In this document: piece after piece, positions 49,702 to 62,194 of the stretch | Layout: each line of letters starts with the position of its first letter | How positions within the stretch are numbered: the stretch's first letter is position 1 | Assembly (NCBI RefSeq): GCF_900116535.1 | Contig: NZ_FPAU01000004.1 | Location: forward strand, 310,001 to 374,000 | From: Kosakonia arachidis | Lineage (GTDB): Bacteria > Pseudomonadota > Gammaproteobacteria > Enterobacterales > Enterobacteriaceae | Reading direction: 5' to 3' | Length of the DNA stretch: 64,000 bases | Translations under genes and position numbers: made by a program | The notes under the pieces: generated by a model | Database searches by the model: none | Told to the model about the DNA's origin: nothing | The model's input: only the letters and a program-made list of their open reading frames with translations

Positions 49702-49852
49702 TGTATTGGCAACATTTAGGGATTTTTTGACAGAATAGAGTATTTAAGCGAGTACGCAAGTCGGTAATAATCCCGGCATGAACAAAATAAACGTCTGTCA
49801 CTGCCGCTTTGGGCGGGCTATCTCCAACGTGTTCCACCGTACCGGCGTCATC

Positions 49853-51841
49853 ATGGCTTCATTGACGCTGCAAAATGACGCCAATGCGTTGCTCTATTCC
49901 ATCAAGAGCTTTGCAGCCGCGATGCTCGCTTATTACATCGCCTTATCGATCGGTCTTGAAAGACCGTCCTGGTCAATCATTACTGTTTATATTGTTTCGC
50001 AGACCTCGGTTGGCGCGTCACTCAGCCGATCCCTTTATCGCCTGGCCGGAACCGTTATCGGTGCCGCGGCGACCGTGCTGATTGTGCCCACGTTCGTGAA
50101 TATGCCGATTTTTTGCAGCGTGGTGCTTACCGGCTGGATCACCTTCTGCCTTTACTTATCCCTGCTTGAACGCACCCCCCGCGCTTACGCTTTTGTTTTA
50201 GCCGGTTACACAGCGAGCCTGATCGGTTTTCCTGCGGTAGTGCATCCCGGCGCGATATTTGACACCGCAATCGTCCGGGTACAGGAGATCGTGATTGGTA
50301 TCCTCTGTGCGTCGCTGCTTCACCGCTATGTTCTGCCAAAACGGATATCCGGCCTGTTCAACAGCAAATTATCGGAAACGCTACGCTCGGCACGACAGAC
50401 CCTTGCTGACGCGCTGGCAGGCAAATCCGACAAGGCGTCAAACAGTCTGCATCTGGCACTGGCGTTACAGTACCTTCAGGGCGTCAGCCACCACATTCCC
50501 TATGACTTCGCCCTTTCTGTACCAATCCGGCACGCCAGAAATGCCCTGCATGACAAGCTGGCCCGATTGTTAATCGTCATCTGCGAATTACGCGATCGCG
50601 TGCAGATGATTGAAGCGATGCCGGACGATCTGTACAGACTGCTGTGTGATGTTCAGCACTGGCTCGCCTGTCAGGATGAGCGGGAACGAAAAATTACAGC
50701 AGAAACGCTAAGAATACGTAGCGAGCAGGTAACGGCGCAGCAGGCTAAACACGCGCTGACGTTGCAAGATGCCGTGCAAGCGAGTTTTGCCCGTCATCTG
50801 ACGGAAGCCATCCTCCTGATACAGCAATGCGAGCGTCTTGCTGGCGCCATCCATCACGCGAAACCCGCGCCTGCGCAGATGCAGGACCATGTGGCAAAAG
50901 GCTATGTTTTCCATCGCGATCATTTGGCCGCTGCACGCACTGCGCTGGGGGCGTTCGTGATCATCCTGAGCGGCTGCCTGGTATGGATTTTCTCGGCCTG
51001 GCCTGATGGCGGGACGGCAGTGTCTATCCTTGGCGTCTGTTGTACGTTGTTTGGCAGTTTCGACGCCCCGGCTCCGCATATTGTGAAATACATTATTGGC
51101 TCCTTCTGGGGCGTATTGATAAGCCTGATCTATAGCTTTGCCCTTCTTCCACACGTTACTGAGTTCACTGTGTTGGTTGCGGTGTTTGCCCCGGCATATC
51201 TGCTGGCCGGATCGCTCCAGGCGCGGCCGCCCACCACGTTTATGGCCATGGGGATCACCCTCACGCTGCCTGTTTTGTGCGAGTTAGATGCCCACTACAG
51301 CGGAGACTTCGCTGTGGCTGTCAACACCGCCATCGCCTTATTTGCCGCGACCGGCTTTGCCGTGATCGGTATGAGCTTGCTGCAAACCGTGCAGGCAGAC
51401 GCGGCCATAAATCGTCTGCTGAAGCGTTGCCACCGCGATATACGACGCAACGTGAAAGGCACCTTTAAAACTGATGAAACGTACTGGACTAATTTAATGA
51501 TCGACAGAACGGCCTTGTTACTTCCGCGTTTGCAGCGTAGCAGGCAATCGCCAGCGCAGACGCTTAACCAGATGCTGCACTATCTGCGAATTGGCCTCGG
51601 CGTGATGCATTTACGCCGTGGCGATTCCCCGGCAGGCGGGGATATGGGGAAAGCGATCAACGAGGTGTTTTACCTACTCAGCCGCGCGACGGATACCGCT
51701 ATCTTGCGCCAGCGTATTGCCGCAATGATTGGACTCTGTTTGCCTGCCGGGCAGCAACAATCGCAGCAATTCATTGGCAGGTTGGTTGATTTGTACTGCG
51801 CATTGCAGGAGCAGAACAGAGAGCAAACCGATGATCAATGA
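49853..51841 (+). CDS. FUSC-family (AaeB/MdtO-like) efflux pump
   Basis: Inner membrane exporter with two repeats of about five or six membrane helices, each followed by a cytoplasmic helical domain, 662 residues from 49853. The N-terminal SIKSFAAAMLAYYIALSIGL and LERPSWSIITVYIVSQ match the family start. An ATG 25 codons earlier (49778) is also open; neither has a strong ribosome site, so the start is uncertain. The family exports aromatic acids and other small molecules. It is coupled to DUF1656 and HlyD genes, as in the aaeXAB and mdtNOP types. Confidence 0.88.
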   Translation: MASLTLQNDANALLYSIKSFAAAMLAYYIALSIGLERPSWSIITVYIVSQTSVGASLSRSLYRLAGTVIGAAATVLIVPTFVNMPIFCSVVLTGWITFCLYLSLLERTPRAYAFVLAGYTASLIGFPAVVHPGAIFDTAIVRVQEIVIGILCASLLHRYVLPKRISGLFNSKLSETLRSARQTLADALAGKSDKASNSLHLALALQYLQGVSHHIPYDFALSVPIRHARNALHDKLARLLIVICELRDRVQMIEAMPDDLYRLLCDVQHWLACQDERERKITAETLRIRSEQVTAQQAKHALTLQDAVQASFARHLTEAILLIQQCERLAGAIHHAKPAPAQMQDHVAKGYVFHRDHLAAARTALGAFVIILSGCLVWIFSAWPDGGTAVSILGVCCTLFGSFDAPAPHIVKYIIGSFWGVLISLIYSFALLPHVTEFTVLVAVFAPAYLLAGSLQARPPTTFMAMGITLTLPVLCELDAHYSGDFAVAVNTAIALFAATGFAVIGMSLLQTVQADAAINRLLKRCHRDIRRNVKGTFKTDETYWTNLMIDRTALLLPRLQRSRQSPAQTLNQMLHYLRIGLGVMHLRRGDSPAGGDMGKAINEVFYLLSRATDTAILRQRIAAMIGLCLPAGQQQSQQFIGRLVDLYCALQEQNREQTDDQ

Positions 51842-52046
51842 CATGAATATTGGCGGTGTCTTTTTCCCGGGCTTGTTGATTATCGCGGTTCTGGCCCTGG
51901 TCTTTACCCTGTTGTGCGTGCCGCTTTTCTCTCTCAGCAGGATTTACCGGCGTTTGCCTTATCGCCCGCTGATGGACTTCTCAATCTATATCGTTACCTT
52001 TTCCCTGCTTATCCAGGGGCTGAATGCGTTGGGGTTATTCGCATGA
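51831..52046 (+). CDS. DUF1656 small membrane protein (AaeX-like)
   Basis: A 71-residue protein with two hydrophobic helices (FFPGLLIIAVLALVFTLLCV and FSIYIVTFSLLIQGLNALGL). AaeX-like proteins always accompany FUSC/HlyD exporters; their role is not known. The ATG at 51831 overlaps the pump stop by 11 bases, and its own stop overlaps the HlyD start by 4. Confidence 0.88.
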   Translation: MINDMNIGGVFFPGLLIIAVLALVFTLLCVPLFSLSRIYRRLPYRPLMDFSIYIVTFSLLIQGLNALGLFA

Positions 52047-52906
52047 AATCTTTGCTATCTCTTTTTGGACGCTATGCACTGACATTAAGCGCAGTGGCGG
52101 TGGCAGCACTTCTGGCTTTTATGATGTGGAAACATTATGCGCAGATACCCTGGACCCGCGATGGTCGGGTGCGTGCTGATGTGGTGCAGATTGCGCCTGA
52201 GGTTTCCGGGCCGGTCAACAGTGTGATAGTCAAAGATAATCAGTGGGTTAATCGTGGTGATGTGCTCTATACGATCGATCCCCGCTGGTTAAAGCTGGCG
52301 GTGGCCAGCGCGCAGGCTGACGTTGAGGCAAAACGCCATGAGATGGTAATGCGCCAGGATGCCGCAACAAGACGTTCCCGCATAAAGGGCGTGATTTCCA
52401 GCGAGGATTTGCAGCAAACAGACAGCGCGGCGAACGTCGCGGTGGCGAACTATCATGGTGCGCTGGCCGCGCTGGAACTGGCACAGCTTAATTTATCCCA
52501 TGCCACGGTTCGCTCACCGGTTGCAGGCTATGTCACGCATCTGCGGCTTCGCGCTGGTGATTATGCCACCGCGGGCGAAACAACAGTGGCTATCGTCGAT
52601 GCTAACAGCTTCTGGGTTGTCGGTTATTTCGAGGAGACCAAACTGCGCCATATTCGTGTAGGAAGTAGCGTACAGATAGCGTTGATGGGGTTTGAGCCCG
52701 CCATTACCGGCCATGTTGAGAGTATCGGGCATGGGATCGGTGACAGTAATGACGAGACGGGCGGGCTTGGCCTGCCGGAAGTGGAACCGACATTCAGTTG
52801 GGTACGGCTCGCGCAGCGTATTCCGGTGCGCATTCATATTGACACCTTACCGGCGGGAATTGATCTGGTGGCTGGCCTGTCTGCGAGCGTGTTGATTACG
52901 CCATAA
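52043..52906 (+). CDS. HlyD-family membrane fusion protein (AaeA-like)
   Basis: Periplasmic adaptor with 287 residues. One N-terminal membrane helix (about 10-29) is followed by a lipoyl-like half (EVSGPVNSVIVKDNQWVNRG), a short coiled hairpin (about 85-130), the second half (VRSPVAGYVTHLRLRAGDY) and a beta-barrel domain. It links the FUSC pump to an outer-membrane channel; the NodT-type lipoprotein at 41.4 kb is a candidate partner. ATG at 52043 overlaps DUF1656. Confidence 0.9.
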   Translation: MKSLLSLFGRYALTLSAVAVAALLAFMMWKHYAQIPWTRDGRVRADVVQIAPEVSGPVNSVIVKDNQWVNRGDVLYTIDPRWLKLAVASAQADVEAKRHEMVMRQDAATRRSRIKGVISSEDLQQTDSAANVAVANYHGALAALELAQLNLSHATVRSPVAGYVTHLRLRAGDYATAGETTVAIVDANSFWVVGYFEETKLRHIRVGSSVQIALMGFEPAITGHVESIGHGIGDSNDETGGLGLPEVEPTFSWVRLAQRIPVRIHIDTLPAGIDLVAGLSASVLITP

Positions 52907-52954
52907 CCGCATAACGTTTCTGGTCAATATTCCGCACACGTTGAGTTTAACGCT

Positions 52955-53329
52955 ATGAACCACAGAAAAGAACTTATCATCAATTTAATCGCATGGATTA
53001 ATCGCAATATTCAGTCGCCAATGAAAATTGATGATGTCGCGGCAAAGTCTGGCTATTCAAAATGGCACTTACAGCGACTGTTTTTTGCGGAGACGGGCCA
53101 GAATCTGGGCCAGTTTATCAGGGAGCGAAAGCTAAGTTTAATTGCCGAGCAGCTGATCAGCTCCAATGAATCATTAATTAGTCTGGCAATGAAATACGGC
53201 TTTGATTCTCAGCAATCATTAACCCGGGCATTTCACAAAAAATATCAACTGCCGCCGCATAAATACAGAAAGACATTTTTCCGTCAGCATTTCGATGATT
53301 TTCATACCGACGTAAAACCACGCAAATAA
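52955..53329 (+). CDS. MarA/SoxS/Rob-like AraC-family activator
   Basis: A single-domain AraC regulator of 124 residues, the size of MarA. The first HTH is IDDVAAKSGYSKWHLQRLFF (about 25-44), the second SLISLAMKYGFDSQQSLTRA, and PHKYRK closes the domain. SGYSKWHLQR and PPHKYR are hallmarks of MarA, SoxS and RamA. It lacks a ligand domain. It begins 48 bases after the HlyD gene and could be cotranscribed, so it may link the efflux operon to a mar-type regulon. Confidence 0.88.
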   Translation: MNHRKELIINLIAWINRNIQSPMKIDDVAAKSGYSKWHLQRLFFAETGQNLGQFIRERKLSLIAEQLISSNESLISLAMKYGFDSQQSLTRAFHKKYQLPPHKYRKTFFRQHFDDFHTDVKPRK

Positions 53330-53433
53330 TCAACCGACTAATAGTTGGGGGCCAGTCTTCTATTACCAGGCCGGGTGACGGTTCAGGAATATCTCTTTAA
53401 AAAGCAGGACGCCTTGACGGAATAACGCGCTTT

Positions 53434-53450
53434 TGTACCACGATGGTGCG
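53434..53450. promoter_or_regulatory. NtrC-type enhancer site 1
   Basis: TGTACCACGATGGTGCG agrees with the remembered consensus TGCACYANNNTGGTGCA at 12 of 14 defined positions. Its centre is about 109 bases before the start of transcription expected from the sigma-54 promoter downstream. Confidence 0.65.
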
Positions 53451-53453
53451 CAC

Positions 53454-53470
53454 TGCATTGCCATAGTGCG
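53454..53470. promoter_or_regulatory. NtrC-type enhancer site 2
   Basis: TGCATTGCCATAGTGCG is a weaker match (10 of 14 defined positions). Its centre is 20 bases from that of site 1, two helical turns, which suits cooperative NtrC dimers. Confidence 0.5.
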
Positions 53471-53524
53471 TGTTCACCTCGCCATCCAGCCCGTTTATTC
53501 GCTTTCTCTGCTGTTTCTTAAAGT

Positions 53525-53540
53525 TGGCGCGTTAATTGCA
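53525..53540 (+). promoter_or_regulatory. Sigma-54 (RpoN) -24/-12 promoter
   Basis: TTGGCGCGTTAATTGCAT (53524-53541) matches the TGGCAC-N5-TTGCA consensus with GG at 53526-53527 and GC at 53538-53539, ten bases between. Transcription would start near 53551. With the two NtrC-type sites this suggests nitrogen-limitation control. Confidence 0.72.
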
Positions 53541-53573
53541 TGATCAACGATACCGCATCCTGCATGGCAGGAA

Positions 53574-53589
53574 CAGGCACCGTAGCCTG
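53574..53589 (+). promoter_or_regulatory. ANTAR-type hexaloop hairpin in the leader RNA
   Basis: CAGGC-ACCGTA-GCCTG: five base pairs and a six-base loop with A at position 1 and G at position 4, the signature of RNA bound by ANTAR proteins such as AmiR, NasR and EutV. A second, bulged hairpin CAGGC-GAAGAA-GCCCTG (53632-53648) overlaps the terminator stem and could be the antiterminator; its loop has G at 1 and 4. Confidence 0.6.
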
Positions 53590-53642
53590 GTAAGCGGCTT
53601 GTGGCGAATCGCCACTCCAGTACATCGATTTCAGGCGAAGAA

Positions 53643-53678
53643 GCCCTGCCGGCAATGCTGTCGGCGGGGCTTTTTTTT
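53643..53678 (+). terminator. Leader attenuator of the permease-nitrilase operon
   Basis: GCCCTGCCGGC pairs over 11 bases (two G-U) with GTCGGCGGGGC around an AATGCT loop, followed by eight T. The ribosome site GGAG and the ATG at 53690 come directly after the T tract, so the operon can only be expressed by read-through. That its loop is also six bases with A1 and G4 is notable. Confidence 0.9.
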
Positions 53679-53689
53679 GGAGTAAATCT

Positions 53690-55183
53690 ATGAGCAAGTT
53701 AAAAGCATGGTTTCAGGGTCCACAAGATATCACCGAAGCCGAAGCCGTTGAGGATTACGCGGTCGGCCGCGTGCCGTCGCACTATCGCTGGCCTATTCCG
53801 GCCATTATTCTGGTGTTGCTCGGCAACTCTACCGCCATGTTCTGGTTTAGCCTTGGCGCGGACATGAGCTATCAGGTCGGCTGGCCCATGTTGCTGCTGC
53901 CGATTGGTTATATGGTGGTGTTCGCCACCTTAATTGGCTCCTGTATTATGAAGATGGCGAGTAAAGAGGGACTTTCACTCAATTTGATGACGCGCGGGCT
54001 GGGATTCGGCTATATGGGATCGGCCTTCACGTCGCTGATTTACGCCGTGAATTTCATCTTCTATTTCCTGTTCGAAGGCACCATCGTCTCTCACGCTATC
54101 GCCAACTATGCGGGCGTGCCAGTCAACTCGGCTGCCGGTATCGCCATCTTTGCGCTAATGGGGCTGGCCGCCATCTGGTTTGTCTGGAAAGGCATGTCAT
54201 CCATGCAATTTCTGCAAACCTGGGGCGTTCCCATTTTTATTGTGTTGTTTGGCTTTTGTATCTGGCAATTAACGCACCATTATCCGGCGGTCGGCTTCAG
54301 CGGCTGGCAGCCAAAAGGGGAGATCGACAGTAACGCATTGTGGCTGGTGATGAATATGGCCAACGGGCAGATTGTCTTCCAGGGATTGATGGCCACCGAT
54401 TACGGTCGTTTTGCCCGTCCGGGTATCAGCCATAAAGGCACTGCCACCATCATGCTGGGGATGCTGATCCCGATTGTGGTGGTGATGCTGTTTGGCGCGT
54501 TTATGGCCTACACCTTGATGCCGCATATTCAGGGAGAGGATGTCTGGTCGCTGGCGCTCGATCCGGGCTTTGTCTTCCCGCTGATTATTGGTTTGACCGG
54601 CGTGTTATTTGCGGTGATTACCCAGATCCGCATCAACGTGCTCAATCTTTACTCGGGTTCGATTGCACTGTCGAATACGATGGATATGGCGTTTAACTAT
54701 CGCCCGGGACGTCAGTGGTGGATGCTGCTGGTTTGGTTGCTTGGTGTGGTGTTCTATATCTGCAATATTTTGCAGTATACCGGCACTTTCCTTTCTATTA
54801 CGGGCATTCTCACCAACACCTGGGTGTTTATTATCCTCGCTGATTACTTTATCTGCCGCAAAGTGCTGCACCTTGCGCCATCCGATTTCGTGGAGTTCCG
54901 TAAAGAGTATCTGCGTATGTGGAACCCGTCCGGCGTGATTGCACTGTGTGCTGCTGTTGCGATAGGCGCGGCTGGTGTGCTGGGCCTGTATCCGATGGTG
55001 TATGCCTCGTTTATCGCCATGCTGGTTGGCCCGGTGCTGCACGTTGCGATCAGCGTTGCCACCCGCGGCAGCTATTACTTCAAAACCTTCCCTGAGGATA
55101 TGCAAACCAACTGGAAACCCGCCGATGCTTATCAGGGACCAAAACCGGTATTTAATCCATTACTGAGCAAGGAGGCTGAATAA
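53690..55183 (+). CDS. NCS1-family permease (cytosine/allantoin/purine type)
   Basis: A 497-residue membrane transporter with about 12 helices. The N-terminal HYRWPIPAIILVLLGNSTAM region and ATDYGRFARPG (about 240-250) are typical of the CodB/NCS1 family, which imports nucleobases, hydantoins and allantoin by cation symport. It is the first gene of an operon with a nitrilase and AmiC/AmiR-like regulators, so it probably takes up the nitrogen compound that the nitrilase cleaves. Its stop overlaps the nitrilase start by one base. Confidence 0.9.
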   Translation: MSKLKAWFQGPQDITEAEAVEDYAVGRVPSHYRWPIPAIILVLLGNSTAMFWFSLGADMSYQVGWPMLLLPIGYMVVFATLIGSCIMKMASKEGLSLNLMTRGLGFGYMGSAFTSLIYAVNFIFYFLFEGTIVSHAIANYAGVPVNSAAGIAIFALMGLAAIWFVWKGMSSMQFLQTWGVPIFIVLFGFCIWQLTHHYPAVGFSGWQPKGEIDSNALWLVMNMANGQIVFQGLMATDYGRFARPGISHKGTATIMLGMLIPIVVVMLFGAFMAYTLMPHIQGEDVWSLALDPGFVFPLIIGLTGVLFAVITQIRINVLNLYSGSIALSNTMDMAFNYRPGRQWWMLLVWLLGVVFYICNILQYTGTFLSITGILTNTWVFIILADYFICRKVLHLAPSDFVEFRKEYLRMWNPSGVIALCAAVAIGAAGVLGLYPMVYASFIAMLVGPVLHVAISVATRGSYYFKTFPEDMQTNWKPADAYQGPKPVFNPLLSKEAE

Positions 55184-56889
55184 TGCGCATCACCGTTGCA
55201 ACCATCCAGTTTGAACCAACGCAGTTTAGAAAAGAGGAAAACGTTGCTCGCCTGCTGGCATTAGCAACCCAGGCCGCGCGTGATGGCGCGCGCTTAATCG
55301 TCATGCCGGAAATGGCCACCACCGGCTATTGTTGGCTGGATCGCGCGGAAGTCGCCCCTTATGTAGAAACGGCGGACGGCGCCACCAGCCAGGCATTTAC
55401 TGCCGTTGCGCGTGAATTTAACTGCTTTTTGGTCTTTGGCATGCCGGAGCGGGATCCGCTGACCGATCTTTACTATAACAGCGCTGTTCTGGTTGGGCCG
55501 CAGGGCGTGATGGGTGTCCATCGTAAAACGCACCCTTATATATCGGAGCCGAAATGGGCGGCTAACGGCAATAGCGGACATCAGGTATTTCACACGGAGA
55601 TCGGCAATATCGCGCTGTTGATCTGTATGGATATTCACTTTATTGAAACCGCCCGGCTGGCCGCGTTGGGCGGCGCGCAAATCATATGCCACATCAGCAA
55701 CTGGCTGGCTGAACGCACGCCCGCACCTTACTGGCTCACGCGTGGTTGGGAGAACGGCTGCACACTGATCGAAAGTAACCGTTGGGGGTGGGAGCGGGGC
55801 GTGCAGTTCAGCGGTGGCAGTTGCATTGTGGATAGCCACGGCAATCTGCTGGCCAGTTGTGACAGCGGCGACCAGGTGCTCAGCACGGAATTACCACTGC
55901 CTGCGGAGAACCCGCAACTGAATAAGCGTCGGCCTGAGTTGTATCACCGTTTGATGACCAACACGTTTCAGTGGAATCCAAAGGACTTTTTTGGCTTATA
56001 CGGACGTAATCCCCTGCCTGACGGCAAAGCGTCCCGTATTGCCGTAGCACAGTTCCGCCCGCAAAACGATGTTGATGCCAACCTGTCACAGATTCGGCAC
56101 TGGGCCGAACAGGCGAAATCGGAGAGTGCGGAACTGCTGGTATTGCCGGAACGTGCGCTGACCGGCGGTAAGGGTAGCCGCTACGCACTGGCGCTGGATG
56201 ATGCGCCAGTACAGGCGCTGATCGCGCTGGCGATAGAACTCGATATCGCGCTGCTTGCGGGGTTTGCCGAGCGGGAAGGGGAGCAGTGCTATAACAGTGC
56301 GGTGCTGGTGAGCAGTGCCGGGCTCGCTGCGCACTATCGGCAGATTCACCTTAGCGAAGAGGATCGGCAATGGGCCTGCGCAGGAAATCAGTGGGTGACC
56401 TGTGATCTCCCTTGCGGGCGGGTCGGTATCTTGCTGGGTGAAGATCTGCTGGTGCCGGAAGCTGCACGTATTCTGGCGCTGGAAGGCTGCGACATTATCG
56501 CGTGCCCCGCGCAGCTCAATTCCCCTGCGCCAATGGCACATGCTGGCACGGCGATCCCCCATGTCTGGCCAATTCCGCGCGGGGCCGATCCTTACCACTG
56601 GCTACTGCCGCGCGTTCGTGCGGGTGAGAATAATGTCTGGCTGGCTTTTGCCAACTGGCCTGCGGCTGAAGGAGAAAGTTTTGGCCTGAGCGGGGTATTC
56701 GGCCCGGATACGTTTGCTTTTCCGCGTCAAGAGGCGAAAGCCACAGGTGCGAAAGGGCTGGCGGTGCTGGATATCTCCACAGGTTCAGCCGATACCACCT
56801 GGCCCGATCATGTGGTAAGACGTAAAGAGCTGGTGCTGATGCGTCAGCCACATTACTACACTGCGCTGGTTGCTCAACCACCGCGATGA
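55183..56889 (+). CDS. Double-domain nitrilase-superfamily hydrolase, second domain inactive
   Basis: A 568-residue fusion of two carbon-nitrogen hydrolase domains. In domain 1 (about 1-265) the Glu-Lys-Cys triad is complete: Glu43 (PEMATTGY), Lys115 (HRKTH) and Cys148 (LLICMD). In domain 2 (about 285-555) Glu323 (PERALTGG) is kept, but the Lys position is Gln387 (YRQIH) and the Cys position is Gly419 (ILLGED). Domain 2 is therefore probably structural or regulatory. The family cleaves nitriles, amides or ureides to acid and ammonia. It follows the permease with the site AAGGAGGCTGAATA. Confidence 0.88.
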   Translation: MRITVATIQFEPTQFRKEENVARLLALATQAARDGARLIVMPEMATTGYCWLDRAEVAPYVETADGATSQAFTAVAREFNCFLVFGMPERDPLTDLYYNSAVLVGPQGVMGVHRKTHPYISEPKWAANGNSGHQVFHTEIGNIALLICMDIHFIETARLAALGGAQIICHISNWLAERTPAPYWLTRGWENGCTLIESNRWGWERGVQFSGGSCIVDSHGNLLASCDSGDQVLSTELPLPAENPQLNKRRPELYHRLMTNTFQWNPKDFFGLYGRNPLPDGKASRIAVAQFRPQNDVDANLSQIRHWAEQAKSESAELLVLPERALTGGKGSRYALALDDAPVQALIALAIELDIALLAGFAEREGEQCYNSAVLVSSAGLAAHYRQIHLSEEDRQWACAGNQWVTCDLPCGRVGILLGEDLLVPEAARILALEGCDIIACPAQLNSPAPMAHAGTAIPHVWPIPRGADPYHWLLPRVRAGENNVWLAFANWPAAEGESFGLSGVFGPDTFAFPRQEAKATGAKGLAVLDISTGSADTTWPDHVVRRKELVLMRQPHYYTALVAQPPR

Positions 56890-56932
56890 ACCACAGGCGC
56901 GGCCTACGGGCCGCGTTGATTCAGGAGCCATT

Positions 56933-58090
56933 ATGTCTGCCACTCAGCCGCTGCCTAAACGCGTTATTCCGGTCGGTATTCTCTATTCTGTTTCAGGCGA
57001 TTATGCGGTTATCGGGCGCGAGATGCTCAACGGCATTCTGCTGGCGATTGAGGAGATAAACGCCAATCCCGCCCATGAATTTACCCTTGCTCCGGTGATC
57101 CGGGATCCTCAGGGTTCTCTGGATCTTTACTACGAATATTGCCATGACTTGCTTTATCGCCACGGCGTGCGCCATGTGATCGGCTGCTACACTTCCGCGG
57201 CACGTAAAACCATTCTGCCGTTAATCGAAGGCGCAAACGCGCTGCTGTGGCACTCCGCGCGCTATGAAGGGTTTGAGAGCAGCAACAGCGTCATTTACCT
57301 TGGTGCCACGCCCAATCAGCATATCTTGCCGATGCTTAGCTGGCTGTTACAGCAGCAGGCGGCGGAAATCTATCACGTCGGTTCTAACTATGTCTGGTCC
57401 TGGGAGATGGATCGCATCACCCGTGAAGCCGTGGTCCCTGCAGGCGGCCGCGTGGTGCAGAGTAAATTACTGCCGCTGGGCGACGAAAATGTGGAGACGT
57501 TAATCGCTGATATTATCGCCTGCCGCCCGAAAGTGCTGCTGAATACCATGGTCGGCAAAAGTGCCTACAGTTTTTACCGCGCCTGGCATCAGGCCTGCCA
57601 GCAACAACCGTGGTTAAACGAGGTGCTGAAGCTAAGCCTGACGCTGTGTGAGCCGGAAGTTCAGTTAATTGGCTCAGAGGCATTAGAGGGGTATCTGGTC
57701 TCCGCAAGCTGGTTTCAGTCGATTGACAGCGACGCCAACCGGCGTTTTCTGAGCAGCTATCGCCAGCGCTTTGGTGAACATGTCTCGCCGTCCGTGGACA
57801 GTGAGAGTGCCTGGCTGGCTGGACATTTGCTGGCGAGAGCCATTGCACGCCACGGCAATGCCGATGTTGAAGGCGTACGCAATGCCGTATTGCAGGATGA
57901 GATGGATTCACCAGCCGGGCGGATCCGCCTCGATGCCGACAATAATCACTGTTGGCTTACCCCGCATCTGGCGCGATGTCACAACGGCAGGCTGGTGAGT
58001 TTCTGGCAGACTGATGCTGCAGTGAAACCCGATCCCTGGCTGGCCTGGGTGGATCTCGCGAGTCTCACGCATCGCGGAGGCAGTGCATGA
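56933..58090 (+). CDS. AmiC-like cytoplasmic ligand sensor
   Basis: A type I periplasmic-binding fold protein without signal peptide, 385 residues, the length of Pseudomonas AmiC. The first lobe starts VIPVGILYSVSGDYAVIGREMLNG, followed by HVIGCYTSAARKTILPLIE. Such proteins bind the inducing amide or urea derivative and hold back an AmiR-type antiterminator. The ATG at 56933 has the site AGGAGCCATT. A CGCGGCC/GGCCGCG hairpin precedes it. Its stop overlaps the AmiR-like gene by 4 bases, which supports a stoichiometric complex. Confidence 0.9.
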   Translation: MSATQPLPKRVIPVGILYSVSGDYAVIGREMLNGILLAIEEINANPAHEFTLAPVIRDPQGSLDLYYEYCHDLLYRHGVRHVIGCYTSAARKTILPLIEGANALLWHSARYEGFESSNSVIYLGATPNQHILPMLSWLLQQQAAEIYHVGSNYVWSWEMDRITREAVVPAGGRVVQSKLLPLGDENVETLIADIIACRPKVLLNTMVGKSAYSFYRAWHQACQQQPWLNEVLKLSLTLCEPEVQLIGSEALEGYLVSASWFQSIDSDANRRFLSSYRQRFGEHVSPSVDSESAWLAGHLLARAIARHGNADVEGVRNAVLQDEMDSPAGRIRLDADNNHCWLTPHLARCHNGRLVSFWQTDAAVKPDPWLAWVDLASLTHRGGSA

Positions 58091-58695
58091 GCCGAAAAAA
58101 TGTGCAGATGCGCGGATTAAAAGTGTGTGTGATTGGCTGCTCCGATCGTGATAACCAACACCTGGCGCAGCAGTTTAGCCGCATAGGGATTGAGGGCATG
58201 TTCTGTGCTACGTTTCCTGATGAGAGCCAACTGGCTGACCAACAACTCCTGTTGTTTGACGGTGATAACTCCACCCTGTTTCACCCCACAAACCTGCTCC
58301 CCTGGCCCGCGCTGCCAAAGATTGCGCTCACCGCTATTGAAACGCCATCGCGTTTACAGTGGATTGCTGAGCAGAAGATAGACAGTTATATGCGCAAACC
58401 GGTACGTTTTGATGGTGTGATGACGGCTTTTACGCTGGCGCTTAATAATGCTGCGCGTATCAACCAACTGGAAGCGCAACTCCGGCGGCAGGAAGAGCGA
58501 CTGCGTGCTCGGAAGTTTCTGTTTTCCGCACAATTGCGGGTTATGCACGCGCTACGGCTGGAGGAAGATGATGCCTACAGTTTGTTGCGCCGTGCCTCGA
58601 TGGCGCAACACATGACCATTGAAAACCTCAGTTGTGAGTTGTTGAACGACACGGAGTCCTGGCTCAACCGGTTGAAATCACTGCTGGCGGAATAG
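58087..58695 (+). CDS. AmiR-like ANTAR-domain transcription antiterminator
   Basis: A 202-residue protein with a degenerate receiver-like N-terminal domain (VCVIGCSDRDNQHLAQQF; no phospho-acceptor pattern), a coiled-coil helix (INQLEAQLRRQEERLRARK) and a C-terminal three-helix ANTAR domain (VMHALRLEEDDAYSLLRRAS, about 150-190). AmiR binds leader RNA and prevents termination when released by AmiC. The leader of this operon has a matching hairpin and terminator, so the protein most likely controls its own operon. Confidence 0.9.
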   Translation: MSRKNVQMRGLKVCVIGCSDRDNQHLAQQFSRIGIEGMFCATFPDESQLADQQLLLFDGDNSTLFHPTNLLPWPALPKIALTAIETPSRLQWIAEQKIDSYMRKPVRFDGVMTAFTLALNNAARINQLEAQLRRQEERLRARKFLFSAQLRVMHALRLEEDDAYSLLRRASMAQHMTIENLSCELLNDTESWLNRLKSLLAE

Positions 58696-58730
58696 CGTAC
58701 CGCGTTAACGTAATTTAGCAACATGCTGTG

Positions 58731-58756
58731 CAAAAAACGGCCTCAATACGAGGCCG
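58731..58756 (-). terminator. Terminator of the LprI/Sel1 gene
   Basis: On the minus strand CGGCCTC-GTATT-GAGGCCG is followed by six T. It lies 26 bases after the stop codon of the minus-strand gene and may also stop the AmiR-like transcript. Confidence 0.85.
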
Positions 58757-58782
58757 GAGGGAACGGGATTTCACTGTTCGGC

Positions 58783-59901
58783 TTAGTTTCTGACCTTAAT
58801 CACACCGTCTTTTGACGCTTGATCCTGAAACACCACTTTACCGCTGTCATTTTTGACAATCTTCACCATTAACACATCGTTATCCATGCTGTTTTGCGCA
58901 AATACGCTAAAGTTTTCCGGCAGTTTGATATGTAATCCATCGGAGAATGCCTCGCCAGCCGTGCTGGGGTAATTTCCGCTGCTCATGTTATAAAGCGTGG
59001 TGATATTGTCTTTGGTGATTTTCAGGTCGCTGTCGTTAAAGCAGTTATCGACATATCCCGGCGCGGTAACCGGGCCACAGGTCACGATTGCAGTATAGCC
59101 ATTGCGGTATTTGGCCTCTTCTTCCATGTTGGATTTTATCGCCGCAATATTTTTATCCGCTAAAGGGCTGCCATTCGCTTTTGCCTTTTCATACCACGCC
59201 AGCGATTGCTGATAATCCTTTTCGACGCCAATCCCGTTGGCATAGTTGTAACCCAAATCAATTTGCGCATTCGCATCATTGGCTTCGGCTGCTGCACGGG
59301 TTAACGCAACACCTTTATTGATATCCTGAGCAACGCTTTTCCCGTAGGTATAGAGAAAACCCAACCGCTGCATGGCCGCCGGATTTTTTTGCGCCGCTGC
59401 GGATTCCAACCAGTGAATGGCTTCGCTTTTTTGCTGCGTCGTGCCCTTACTGAGCTCAATTCCCCACGCGGCCTGCGCAGCGATATCGCCCGCTTCAGCT
59501 TTCATTTCAAGTTCCGATTTGGCGGCAACAGGCGCAGGCTGCGGAGCAACAGGGGCAGGATCAGGTTTCGTCTGAACTGGTTCAGTTTTGGTACCCAGCA
59601 GTGTTTGCAGGTCCTGAATGCGGGACTGATACGCGGTTTGCAGCGACTCAATTGTCGTCGCCTTATTACGAATATCTTTCAGCCATGACAACTGGGATTT
59701 GCGCAGCAGGACTTTATTTTCCGGTTGCTGCTGAAGTAGCTGGTTATAGCGCTCGTTAAGCTGGCTATCCATCTTCGACAGCGCAGGCGTGGAGCAAATG
59801 GTAAGTTCGACAAAACCTGCGGCTTTTTCGCAATTAAACGAGGCGCTGCTGGCCATTTGCGAAATGCAGCACAGCAAGCCTGCCAGAATGACTTTCTTCA
59901 T
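58783..59901 (-). CDS. Periplasmic LprI/DUF1311 and Sel1-repeat protein
   Basis: A 372-residue exported protein. A signal peptide (MKKVILAGLLCCISQMASS) is followed by a DUF1311/LprI domain with paired cysteines (FNCEKAAGFVELTIC, about 22-36), a Pro-rich linker, about three Sel1-like repeats (AWGIELSKG, LGFLYTYGK, LGYNYANGIG) and a C-terminal beta-rich part with two more cysteines. LprI-type domains can inhibit lysozyme and Sel1 repeats bind proteins, so a protective or adaptor role in the periplasm is possible. Start at 59901 has GGGCAAGATT upstream; a 41-codon extension is not family-like. Confidence 0.82.
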   Translation of the reverse strand: MKKVILAGLLCCISQMASSASFNCEKAAGFVELTICSTPALSKMDSQLNERYNQLLQQQPENKVLLRKSQLSWLKDIRNKATTIESLQTAYQSRIQDLQTLLGTKTEPVQTKPDPAPVAPQPAPVAAKSELEMKAEAGDIAAQAAWGIELSKGTTQQKSEAIHWLESAAAQKNPAAMQRLGFLYTYGKSVAQDINKGVALTRAAAEANDANAQIDLGYNYANGIGVEKDYQQSLAWYEKAKANGSPLADKNIAAIKSNMEEEAKYRNGYTAIVTCGPVTAPGYVDNCFNDSDLKITKDNITTLYNMSSGNYPSTAGEAFSDGLHIKLPENFSVFAQNSMDNDVLMVKIVKNDSGKVVFQDQASKDGVIKVRN

Positions 59902-60216
59902 AATCTTGCCCTTTTTGAGTTTGAATATCTCTATCGGGCTGAAACTAAAAAGCTTTAGGGCAAACAGCGATACTTTGTACGTGGTAATGGCGGAAACGAG
60001 ATAACAGACTGACCAGACGGGCACAGCAGAGGATTGACGGGTGGATATCGCAAAAAAATGTGTGAGACTAAAACGGGTTTGCCTACCGTTCGACCGTCAG
60101 TGAATTCTCTCACGCATACATTCCAGCGCAGCATAGCGGTTATGCCTGCGCAGATGTTTCTGGCCTATGCATGTCTCTTTATGCTTCGTTCACCATTCCA
60201 GTAGAGAAGAGACAAA
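59902..60216. other. 315-base divergent gap, no gene seen
   Basis: This space between the LprI/Sel1 gene and the Old Yellow Enzyme gene holds the promoters of both. I see no convincing operator, repeat or small gene in it. Confidence 0.5.
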
Positions 60217-61329
60217 ATGAATGCATTATTTACCCCTGTTATGGCAGGAAAACTGCGTCTTCAACATCGTGTTGTTATGGCGCCGACAACGCGGATGCGC
60301 ACGGATAAAGGCGGTGTACCCGGAGATTTAATGGTTGAGTATTATCGCCAGCGCACCAGTCTGGGAGGTCTGCTGATTGCGGAAGCGACCGCGATTTCAC
60401 CTTTCGCGAATGCTTACGCTGATGCCCCTGGCATTTTTAATCCTGCACAACAGGCGGGATGGAAACGTGTTGTTGATGCGGTGCATGAGCAAGGCGGCCA
60501 GATTGTGTTGCAACTTTGGCACCCAGGACGCCAGTCCTTGCCGGAACTCTCCGAAGGGCAGGCTCCTGTCGCGCCCTCTGCACTGATAGCGCAGGATACC
60601 TACGGTATGGTCAAAAATGAAGACGGAACTTATGAAGGGAAACTGTTCCCTGAACCCAGGGCCCTTGAAGAGCGTGAAATTGTCGGGATCATTGCGGCGT
60701 TCGGGCTTGCGGCGAAACGCGCGAAAGCTGCCGGTTTCGATGGCGTTGAACTCCATGCGGCGAACGGCTATCTGCCGGAGCAATTTCTGCTGGATGGCAG
60801 TAACTTACGCCGGGATAAATGGGGCGGAAGCCTGGCAAATCGAACACGTTTTTTACTGCAGGTTGTGACTGCACTCATAGACGTTTGGGGTGCAGGGCGA
60901 GTCGCTGTGCGTATTTCACCAAGTGGGATTTATGGCGATATGCGTGACAGCGATCCGGCGTCGACATTTTGTTATTTGGCCGAAAAGCTAAATGATTCGG
61001 CACTGGCTTACCTGCATATTATTGAGCCTCGCATTGTGGGACCGGAAGATCGTGACAGTGGTTATTATGCTGAACCTATTGCCAGCCATCAGTTGCGCGC
61101 GTTTTACCATGGCACGATTATCGCTGCGGGTGGGTTCAAACCCGAAGCCGCTGAGCAGATGCTGGCGGCGAAGGATGCCGATTTAATTGCATTTGGTCGC
61201 TTATTTACCGCTAACCCGGATCTGCCTGTACGTATTCAATATGGTTACCCGTTAACGCCTTATCAACGCGAAACGTTTTTTGGTGGTAATGGGCACGGAT
61301 ATATTGATTTTCCTACCTGGCAGCCTTAA
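60217..61329 (+). CDS. Old Yellow Enzyme-family alkene reductase
   Basis: FMN-dependent ene-reductase (NemA/OYE type) of 370 residues. VVMAPTTRMR binds FMN near the start, WHPGRQS holds a flavin ligand, and the substrate-binding and proton-donor residues His180, Asn183 and Tyr185 lie in HAANGYLPEQFL. The usual DxYGGS motif reads DKWGGS, with Trp for Tyr. NADPH-dependent reduction of enones, nitroesters or maleimides is likely. GTAGAGAAGAGACAAA precedes the ATG. A terminator follows; the gene converges on the SDR-crotonase-GST operon. Confidence 0.9.
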   Translation: MNALFTPVMAGKLRLQHRVVMAPTTRMRTDKGGVPGDLMVEYYRQRTSLGGLLIAEATAISPFANAYADAPGIFNPAQQAGWKRVVDAVHEQGGQIVLQLWHPGRQSLPELSEGQAPVAPSALIAQDTYGMVKNEDGTYEGKLFPEPRALEEREIVGIIAAFGLAAKRAKAAGFDGVELHAANGYLPEQFLLDGSNLRRDKWGGSLANRTRFLLQVVTALIDVWGAGRVAVRISPSGIYGDMRDSDPASTFCYLAEKLNDSALAYLHIIEPRIVGPEDRDSGYYAEPIASHQLRAFYHGTIIAAGGFKPEAAEQMLAAKDADLIAFGRLFTANPDLPVRIQYGYPLTPYQRETFFGGNGHGYIDFPTWQP

Positions 61330-61338
61330 TAAATAATA

Positions 61339-61373
61339 AAATCGGGCACATGGCGGTTGCCCGATTTGTTGTT
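61339..61373 (+). terminator. Terminator of the Old Yellow Enzyme gene
   Basis: AAATCGGGCA and TTGCCCGATTT pair around CATGGCGG, followed by GTTGTTTTT. Confidence 0.8.
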
Positions 61374-61468
61374 TTTATATACGCCAGCTCACGTAAGCAT
61401 CGCTGATATTTTGCGGTTTCTCTTGCTTCTCAACAGCACGTCCCGTTGACTGTTTACCTGACGATTCG

Positions 61469-62194
61469 TTAGAGCTGTGATACGCCTATTGACGCACCAC
61501 CATCAACGTACAGTGTCTGCCCGGTAATAAATCCAGCATCGTCACTCAGCAAGAACTGAGCGGCCGCGGCTATCTCCTCGGGCTGGCCCAAACGTTTCAT
61601 CGGAACACCGGCAAGGTAGCGCTGCTCACCCTCACTTCCAGCGGCGTTGTTGGCCCGAAACAGCGCTGTTTCTGTCGGCCCCGGAGCCACTGCATTCACG
61701 GTAATCCCTTGCGTAGCCAGTTCCAGCGCCCAGCTACGTGTGAAACTGACTAACGCGGCTTTGGCGGCAGCATAGGATGTCCGCTGCGGTACGCCGAGTA
61801 CCGTCAGGCTGGCAATGTTCATAATTCTCCCCCAGCCGCGGGCGCGCATACCCGGTAAAGCGCTTTGAACCGCCAGCAGTGCGGGATGCAGGTTAACCCT
61901 CAAGACCTCATCAAGCGTATCTGTCGTGACATCAGGCAGCCATTGCGGGCGTACCAGGCCGACGTTATTGATGACGCCATCCACCCTGAACGCCGCATTT
62001 ATCTTGCTGAATTGCTGTTGTACCGCCGGGGTATCGGCAAGATCGAGGGCAATAAATTGCCCCGGATAACCCTGTTCAGGCGCATGGCGAGCAATCCCGA
62101 TAACATGATGCCCGGCACTGGCCAGACGTTCAGATAAAGCGAAACCGATACCTTTACTGGCTCCGGTAATGAGAAATGTTCTTTGCTGATTCAT
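61469..62194 (-). CDS. Short-chain dehydrogenase/reductase
   Basis: Classical SDR of 241 residues: cofactor motif TGASKGIG (10-17), NNVG (76-79) in place of NNAG, and the active site Ser129, Tyr141 and Lys145 (YAAAK). The ending DDAGFITGQTLYVDGG is typical. It oxidises or reduces an alcohol/ketone pair with NAD(P). It is the last gene of a likely operon GST-crotonase-SDR, 74 bases after the crotonase. The substrate is not known. Confidence 0.89.
   Translation of the reverse strand: MNQQRTFLITGASKGIGFALSERLASAGHHVIGIARHAPEQGYPGQFIALDLADTPAVQQQFSKINAAFRVDGVINNVGLVRPQWLPDVTTDTLDEVLRVNLHPALLAVQSALPGMRARGWGRIMNIASLTVLGVPQRTSYAAAKAALVSFTRSWALELATQGITVNAVAPGPTETALFRANNAAGSEGEQRYLAGVPMKRLGQPEEIAAAAQFLLSDDAGFITGQTLYVDGGASIGVSQL

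What the first reader, a model, noticed from the sequence alone, without database searches (positions are those of the whole stretch)
53430..58695. Nitrogen-controlled permease / double nitrilase / AmiC / AmiR operon with complete cis-control
One transcript unit appears to join an NCS1 permease, a nitrilase-family hydrolase, an AmiC-like sensor and an AmiR-like ANTAR antiterminator. In Pseudomonas the sensor pair controls an aliphatic amidase; here the partner is a different enzyme class and an NCS1-type importer. Upstream lie NtrC-like sites, a sigma-54 promoter, an ANTAR hairpin and a terminator, so the sequence reads as a two-lock device: nitrogen shortage starts transcription and the ligand lets it pass. 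The substrate is unknown; nitriles, ureides, hydantoins or N-heterocycle amides are candidates.
Basis: partly seen in the sequence, partly recalled or inferred. Interest (0 to 1): 0.85.

Follow-up and report, generated by a model that had tools for sequence, protein, structure and literature searches.

The report
Amide-scavenging operon with two locks
A plant-associated bacterium carries a four-gene operon that probably imports and splits a small amide for its nitrogen, switched on only when nitrogen is short and the amide is present; the switch is of a known type, but the enzyme and its exact food are uncharacterised.

Summary
Window 53434-58695 (Kosakonia-like genome) has NtrC-like sites, a sigma-54 promoter, an ANTAR-type leader with terminator, then permease, double nitrilase, AmiC and AmiR. 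The leader occurs in 14 of 14 permease-hydrolase-AmiC-AmiR operons compared, and is missing in one relative without AmiC/AmiR. Its P2+terminator pattern hits 9 of 394 Enterobacterales genomes, each next to this permease, an ANTAR gene or a nitrite-reductase-like gene. The two-lock logic is known from Klebsiella nasF; AmiC input and cargo differ. 'Different enzyme class' is wrong: Pseudomonas AmiE is also a nitrilase-superfamily amidase. The double nitrilase has one active site: the C-half has Gly for the catalytic Cys in 86 of 86 rows. In five relatives a nitrile hydratase, with its own copy of the leader, stands in place of the permease, and their AmiC shares the window's pocket motif; in 41 of 80 loci an FmdA-type amidase gene lies nearby. 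I infer that a small amide, imported or made from a nitrile, is inducer and substrate. New variant of a known kind; substrate unresolved, no expression data.

The parts
53434..53450 (+). NtrC-like site TGTACC-N5-GGTGCG (2 mismatches to a recalled consensus); a weaker one (4 mismatches) at 53454-53470
   Evidence: set-wise support; not significant alone
53525..53540 (+). sigma-54-like -24/-12 promoter; transcription start inferred near 53551
   Evidence: 14 of 14 operons
53553..53597 (+). three-way junction in the leader: outer stem CCGC/GCGG (53553-53556 / 53594-53597) enclosing hairpins P0 and P1
   Evidence: folds; outer stem 4/4 paired in 14 of 14, P0 5/5 in 12 and 4/5 in 2, (arms delimited by hand)
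53574..53589 (+). ANTAR hairpin P1, CAGGC-ACCGTA-GCCTG (hexaloop A1, G4)
53601..53615 (+). linker hairpin between P1 and P2 (Kosakonia/Pantoea type)
53634..53645 (+). ANTAR hairpin P2, GGC-GAAGAA-GCC, overlaps 5' arm of the terminator
53638..53678 (+). intrinsic terminator with U run
53690..55183 (+). NCS1-like permease, 497 aa
   Evidence: divergent: TIGR00800 59.8 bits against cut-off 353.1; no PDB sequence relative at E <= 0.001
55183..56889 (+). nitrilase-superfamily hydrolase, 568 aa, N-half with E43, K115, E122, C148; C-half with G419 at the Cys place and Q387 at the Lys place
56933..58090 (+). AmiC-like sensor, no signal peptide seen
58087..58695 (+). AmiR-like ANTAR antiterminator
   Evidence: sequence match to solved AmiR weak (E 0.022)

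Best explanation
A nitrogen-scavenging amide operon. Under nitrogen limitation NtrC-P activates the sigma-54 promoter (inferred). Most transcripts stop at the leader terminator. AmiC in the cytoplasm holds AmiR; when AmiC binds its ligand, a small amide, AmiR is freed and binds P1 and P2, and because P2 uses the 5' arm of the terminator, read-through follows (inferred from AmiC/AmiR and ANTAR precedent; the mutually exclusive folds are computed here). The permease imports the amide and the N-half of the hydrolase releases ammonia; the C-half is a structural or regulatory pseudo-enzyme. In five relatives the amide is made from a nitrile by a nitrile hydratase under the same kind of leader.
For: Leader with sigma-54-like site, P1, P2 and terminator in 14 of 14 operons, absent from L045, which has permease and hydrolase but no AmiC/AmiR. 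P2+terminator pattern: 9 of 394 Enterobacterales genomes, no hit for the reversed control; 2 precede this permease; 4 lie beside an AmiR-like hit (19.6-22.9 bits), of which the one examined (L114) has an ANTAR gene and then an NMT1-type binding protein and permease as in nitrate importers; 3 precede genes with nitrite/sulfite reductase domains, one with a NIT+ANTAR gene nearby. Five loci with hydrolase-AmiC-AmiR and then nitrile hydratase (CTLCSC, the cobalt-type motif as recalled) have a P2-like element and terminator before both hydrolase and hydratase in 5 of 5. Their AmiC proteins share the window's pocket motif (17 of 30 aligned have it), and their hydrolases lie in one clade with the permease-type ones (SH-aLRT 99, quick tree). 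E43, K115, E122, C148 invariant in 86 of 86 rows. The hydrolase model best matches an amidase (6ypa, glutaramide bound); the AmiC model best matches a urea-binding protein, then AmiC. 41 of 80 loci have an FmdA-type gene.
Against: No expression or binding data. P1-P2 spacing is 44-61 nt, whereas eut linkers are 5-12 nt and lengthening one to 14 nt impaired induction (PMC3369931, passages). Loop position 1 is G, not A, in window P2 and in both loops of four Pantoea leaders (L023, L024, L025, L028). In L034/L035 P1 has only 3 pairs. No P1 hexaloop was recognised by eye in the nitrile-hydratase-type leaders; L032's hydrolase leader and L033's hydratase leader deviate from the strict P2 pattern and L036's hydrolase sigma-54 site has a mismatch. 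L067 shares the AmiC pocket motif but its genome has no strict P2 hit, nor have the seven ABC-type genomes with AmiC/AmiR. AmiC differs from Pseudomonas AmiC at Y104H, T106A, P107R, so the ligand need not be acetamide-like. Single NtrC and sigma-54 matches are within chance. The window genome's own nitrile hydratase lies in a separate aldoxime operon without this leader.
Confidence: 0.65

Rival explanations
1. Same switch, but the substrate is a ureide or cyclic nitrogen compound (hydantoin, pyrimidine product, carbamoyl compound): the permease belongs to NCS1, and nitrilase-superfamily enzymes include carbamoylases.
For: PF02133 match; carbamoylases among fold matches from rank 7 on; closest AmiC structure is a urea-binding protein.
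Against: Nitrile hydratase under the same kind of leader with the same AmiC pocket motif; FmdA-type gene in 41 of 80 loci; best enzyme matches are amidase/nitrilase structures; permease too divergent to carry a substrate name.
Confidence: 0.2
2. The hydrolase is a true nitrilase (nitrile to acid directly) and the inducer is the nitrile.
For: NCBIfam archaeal nitrilase model at 226.4 bits (cut-off 500); nitrilase 3ivz among the best structures.
Against: Co-regulation with a nitrile hydratase would be redundant; the second catalytic Glu (E122; C-E-E-K tetrad, seen as a title in the reference list of PMC10781810) is invariant in 86 of 86 rows; nitriles rarely need a permease (general knowledge).
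Confidence: 0.12
3. The leader is decayed or idle: AmiR no longer acts on it, and the operon is simply Ntr-controlled.
For: P1-P2 spacing outside the eut range; AmiR match to solved AmiR weak (E 0.022).
Against: P2 is invariant among 14 operons but for loop position 1, with covarying stems upstream; L045 without AmiR lacks it.
Confidence: 0.06

Closest known systems
Pseudomonas aeruginosa amidase operon (amiE-amiB-amiC-amiR-amiS; gene order recalled)
   Same: AmiC receptor plus AmiR ANTAR antiterminator; nitrilase-superfamily amidase; leader terminator
   Different: No sigma-54/Ntr control that I recall there; AmiE has no fused dead half; here an NCS1-like permease; AmiC pocket motif altered
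Klebsiella oxytoca nasF operon / NasR
   Same: Ntr-dependent transcription plus ANTAR antitermination (PMC5424462, passages); the same P2+terminator pattern stands before nitrate/nitrite-type genes
   Different: NasR senses nitrate by its own NIT domain; cargo is nitrate assimilation
Formamidase clusters: fmdA with urtABCDE (e.g. Pseudomonas veronii, PMC13209695, passages)
   Same: Short-amide use; UrtA/AmiC-type receptors; FmdA-type gene near relatives of this hydrolase in 41 of 80 loci
   Different: Window operon has neither FmdA nor ABC importer; the paper found no amiC/amiR in that chromosomal cluster
Pyrococcus horikoshii amidase (6ypa, 1j31) and the hyperthermophilic nitrilase 3ivz
   Same: N-half fold and catalytic residues
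   Different: Single domain; no fused inactive half

Membership tests
AmiC/AmiR receptor-antiterminator pairs | AmiC-type binding protein without signal peptide, next to AmiR with pseudo-receiver and ANTAR | tested here: met
   signal peptide judged by eye only
AmiC/AmiR receptor-antiterminator pairs | ligand-dependent release of AmiR | not testable with these tools
   needs biochemistry
ANTAR RNA targets | two hairpins with hexaloops, A at 1 and G at 4, C:G closing pair | tested here: inconclusive
   both hairpins, closing C:G and G4 in 14 of 14; position 1 is A or G
ANTAR RNA targets | second hairpin mutually exclusive with terminator | tested here: met
   in 14 of 14, forcing P2 cuts the terminator stem back from the U run; the terminator form is lower by 10.6-12.3 kcal/mol in 12, by 6.8 in L034 and 7.1 in L035
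ANTAR RNA targets | short linker between hairpins (5-12 nt in eut) | tested here: not met
   44-61 nt; linker hairpins may shorten the distance
sigma-54 promoters | -24/-12 element (consensus recalled) | tested here: met
   14 of 14 operons
NtrC-activated promoters | upstream NtrC sites (consensus recalled) | tested here: inconclusive
   set-wise excess over shuffles, single site not significant, distance varies 68-146
nitrilase superfamily amidases | Glu-Lys-Cys triad plus second Glu | tested here: met
   N-half, 86 of 86 rows
nitrilase superfamily amidases | both halves with catalytic residues (as 'double nitrilase' implies) | tested here: not met
   C-half Cys is Gly in 86 of 86; Lys is Gln in 49, Lys in 37; Glu kept in 79
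NCS1 permeases | match to family models | tested here: inconclusive
   Pfam cut-off passed, TIGR00800 cut-off not passed

The most novel reading that the evidence does not exclude
A single, undescribed nitrogen compound is used through this one enzyme family (active half fused to an obligatorily dead half) across Pseudomonadota including SAR11, Bacillota, Spirochaetota, Planctomycetota and Thermodesulfobacteriota, with swappable supply modules (NCS1 permease, Urt-like ABC, nitrile hydratase) and a dedicated AmiC pocket; the leader is a long-range ANTAR target in which a three-way junction and linker hairpins bring distant P1 and P2 together.
Probability: 0.25. Interest if true: 0.72.

Novelty: new variant of a known kind. 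Interest (0 to 1): 0.5.

Why it matters
It gives a testable handle on a widespread uncharacterised amidase family (the 80 relatives kept span at least five phyla; 105 plasmid records hold a relative): leader and AmiC pocket point to one inducer, so a reporter strain can reveal the natural substrate. It also shows the nas-type 'nitrogen shortage AND inducer' logic rebuilt with an amide-type receptor, and offers an ANTAR target whose hairpins lie far apart.

Tried and rejected
Rfam search of 50000-62000: nothing. Nitrile hydratase of the window's own genome as partner: it lies on another contig in an aldoxime dehydratase/amidase operon; I read its surroundings by eye and the strict leader pattern occurs only once in the genome, at the operon, so it is no evidence. 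The homologous region fetched from G003 (L113) was not examined, nor L115 and L118. Looking for the leader in seven ABC-type genomes (L061, L069, L073, L075, L078, L081, L090) with a loose pattern gave 25 hits against 18 for the reversed control, that is noise; the strict pattern gave none there. A Klebsiella plasmid relative (L145) has a terminator before its receptor gene but its GGC-AATAGA-GCC loop lacks G4; a Rhizobium one (L144) has GGC-AAGGAT-GCC with a terminator; both read by eye only. First guess that P0 was the partner hexaloop hairpin: rejected, its loop is not conserved. Papers: searches were seen as listings, some cut (20 of 129, 20 of 32, 8 of 13 and 10 of 20 rows); no listed title or abstract start reports this operon, ANTAR control of a nitrile hydratase, or an enzyme with a dead half. 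PMC3369931, PMC7496416, PMC5424462, PMC13209695 and PMC10781810 were seen as passages only. Supplements could not be read, so the ANTAR target lists of PMC3369931 may already hold some of these leaders. In the P0 permutation test (2 of 720 as high, one of them the observed pairing itself) the arms were delimited by hand after folding.
Full report
WHAT IS THERE. The window is a stretch of a Kosakonia-like genome (G000:C14:310001-374000; nearest named relative Kosakonia sacchari L021, 94% identity in the hydrolase). Four genes on the + strand, 53690-58695, overlap or are closely spaced: an NCS1-like permease, a 568-aa hydrolase with two CN_hydrolase stretches, an AmiC-like receptor and an AmiR-like ANTAR protein. 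Upstream lie efflux-type genes and a MarA/RamA-like regulator (below the curated cut-offs), downstream a convergent Sel1/LprI gene. In the genus the operon's hydrolase is present at 94-100% in 4 of 15 genomes (G000, G003, G004, G009). No match in the E. coli genome collection (megablast).

THE LEADER. Fourteen operons with the gene set permease-hydrolase-AmiC-AmiR were compared (window, L021-L030, L034, L035, L097; L002-L004 were too short to hold the leader). All 14 have TGGYRY-N5-TTGC, P1 (CAGGC-R-N-CG-N-N-G), P2 (GGC-RAAGAA-GCC) and a terminator, in that order. P1 and P2 lie 44-61 nt apart. Folding gives a junction stem around P0 and P1; the outer stem pairs 4/4 in 14 of 14, including a different CATG/CATG version in Mangrovibacter, and P0 pairs 5/5 in 12 and 4/5 in 2, with six distinct arm pairs (29 of 30 cells paired, permutation mean 18.0, 2 of 720 as high, one being the observed pairing; arms delimited by hand). 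In 14 of 14 the terminator form is the lower in energy, by 10.6-12.3 kcal/mol in 12 and 6.8 and 7.1 in Mangrovibacter, and forcing P2 cuts the terminator stem back. In L045 (Pseudomonas sp.), which has permease and hydrolase but no AmiC/AmiR, the region lacks these elements.

SPECIFICITY. The pattern GGCRAAGAWGCCC-N5-35-GGGCTTTTT occurs once in the window's genome, at the operon, and in 9 of 394 Enterobacterales genomes, with no hit for the reversed control. Two of the nine precede this permease (L101, the window itself, and L109). Four (L102-L105) lie beside an AmiR-like hit (19.6-22.9 bits); the one examined further, L114, has an ANTAR protein and then an NMT1-type binding protein and an ABC permease, as in nitrate importers. 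The other three precede a reductase with nitrite/sulfite-reductase domains (L116, L117, L119), and L116 has a NIT+ANTAR gene nearby; no ANTAR gene was looked for at L117 and L119. So the element appears to belong to ANTAR-controlled nitrogen assimilation. The sigma-54 and NtrC sites are weak singly and rest on comparison.

THE ENZYME. Of 117 relatives found, the best 80 were kept. In an 86-row alignment (these 80, five loci, one of which is the window's own copy, and the window) E43, K115, E122 and C148 are invariant; in the second half the Cys place is Gly in 86 of 86, the Lys place Gln in 49 and Lys in 37, the Glu place Glu in 79. 94 positions of residues 1-280 and 42 of the rest are the same in at least 84 rows. 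The AlphaFold model (mean pLDDT 88.0) matches 6ypa, an amidase with glutaramide, best. So 'double nitrilase' means one active and one dead half.

CONTEXT. Among the 80 loci (flanks of 5 kb or less, so undercounts): AmiC-AmiR in 31, adjacent NCS1 permease in 14, FmdA-type gene in 41, Urt-like ABC label in 57, nitrile hydratase in 5, none of these in 4. The Urt label rests on a single ATPase hit in at least four loci (L033, L036, L067, L089) and is doubtful there. Rhizobium johnstonii pRL12 has an AmiC-type receptor, ANTAR protein, a second receptor, urtBCDE and hydrolase in one row; public annotation calls the window-type proteins 'nitrilase-related carbon-nitrogen hydrolase' and 'cytosine permease'.

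THE NITRILE HYDRATASE LINK. L031, L032, L033, L036 and L037 carry hydrolase-AmiC-AmiR followed by nitrile hydratase genes with the motif CTLCSC (cobalt type, recalled), in L031 and L033 with a NicO-type gene. Before both the hydrolase and the nitrile hydratase stand a sigma-54-like site (one mismatch before the L036 hydrolase), a P2-like element and a terminator in 5 of 5; the strict pattern finds both in three of the five genomes, one in each of the other two, and nothing elsewhere in them. Their AmiC proteins share WH-x-[AP]-R, GS[ND]Y-[VI]-W and TLCE with the permease-type ones, unlike the ABC-type ones of Yersinia and kin. The hydrolase tree (quick method) places the five within one clade with the permease-type ones (SH-aLRT 99). 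This suggests one amide, either imported or made from a nitrile. Against: L067 (Paraburkholderia) shares the pocket motif without permease, hydratase or strict leader pattern. The numbers Y104, T106, P107 of Pseudomonas AmiC are counted on the alignment; that they line the pocket is recalled.

HOW IT WORKS AND WHAT IS KNOWN. Shown: anatomy, conservation, mutually exclusive predicted folds, loss of the catalytic Cys in the C-half. Inferred: NtrC activation, AmiC release of AmiR, antitermination, amide as ligand and substrate. The logic equals that of nasF (Ntr plus NasR; PMC5424462, passages), with the AmiC/AmiR input of the Pseudomonas amidase operon (PMC3369931, passages). It is therefore a new variant of a known kind. 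Open points: long P1-P2 spacing, G or A at loop position 1 (NasR SELEX prefers A; PMC7496416, passages), no recognised P1 in the nitrile-hydratase-type leaders, substrate.

Noticed in passing
window 49778-53329: FUSC-type and HlyD-type efflux genes followed by a small AraC regulator close to RamA/MarA (below the curated cut-offs), just upstream of the operon.
   Followed up: no
L112 (window's own genome, other contig): Haem-type dehydratase (aldoxime dehydratase, inferred), MetA-pathway porin-like gene, amidase, nitrile hydratase alpha and beta, CbtA cobalt transporter. Nitrile hydratase alpha was found in 2 of 15 genomes of the genus, both of which also carry the window operon's hydrolase.
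   Followed up: partly
L116, L117, L119, L102-L105: Leaders of nitrate/nitrite-type genes share nearly the same P2+terminator as the window, so cross-talk between nitrate and amide antiterminators is possible where both occur.
   Followed up: no
window 56890-56932: A strong GC-rich hairpin lies between hydrolase and AmiC; several relatives show GC-rich inverted repeats of other sequence there, perhaps lowering AmiC/AmiR output.
   Followed up: partly
L082-L084: In Pelagibacter-type genomes the hydrolase is followed by a DUF1989 gene and divergent from a Urt-like ABC operon.
   Followed up: no
L145 8214-9194: In a Klebsiella michiganensis plasmid an ISKpn26 element is annotated between the AmiC-type and ANTAR genes of the ABC-type version.
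   Followed up: no
L094: A Lachnospiraceae locus has a glutamine synthetase gene between the FmdA-type gene and the hydrolase.
   Followed up: no
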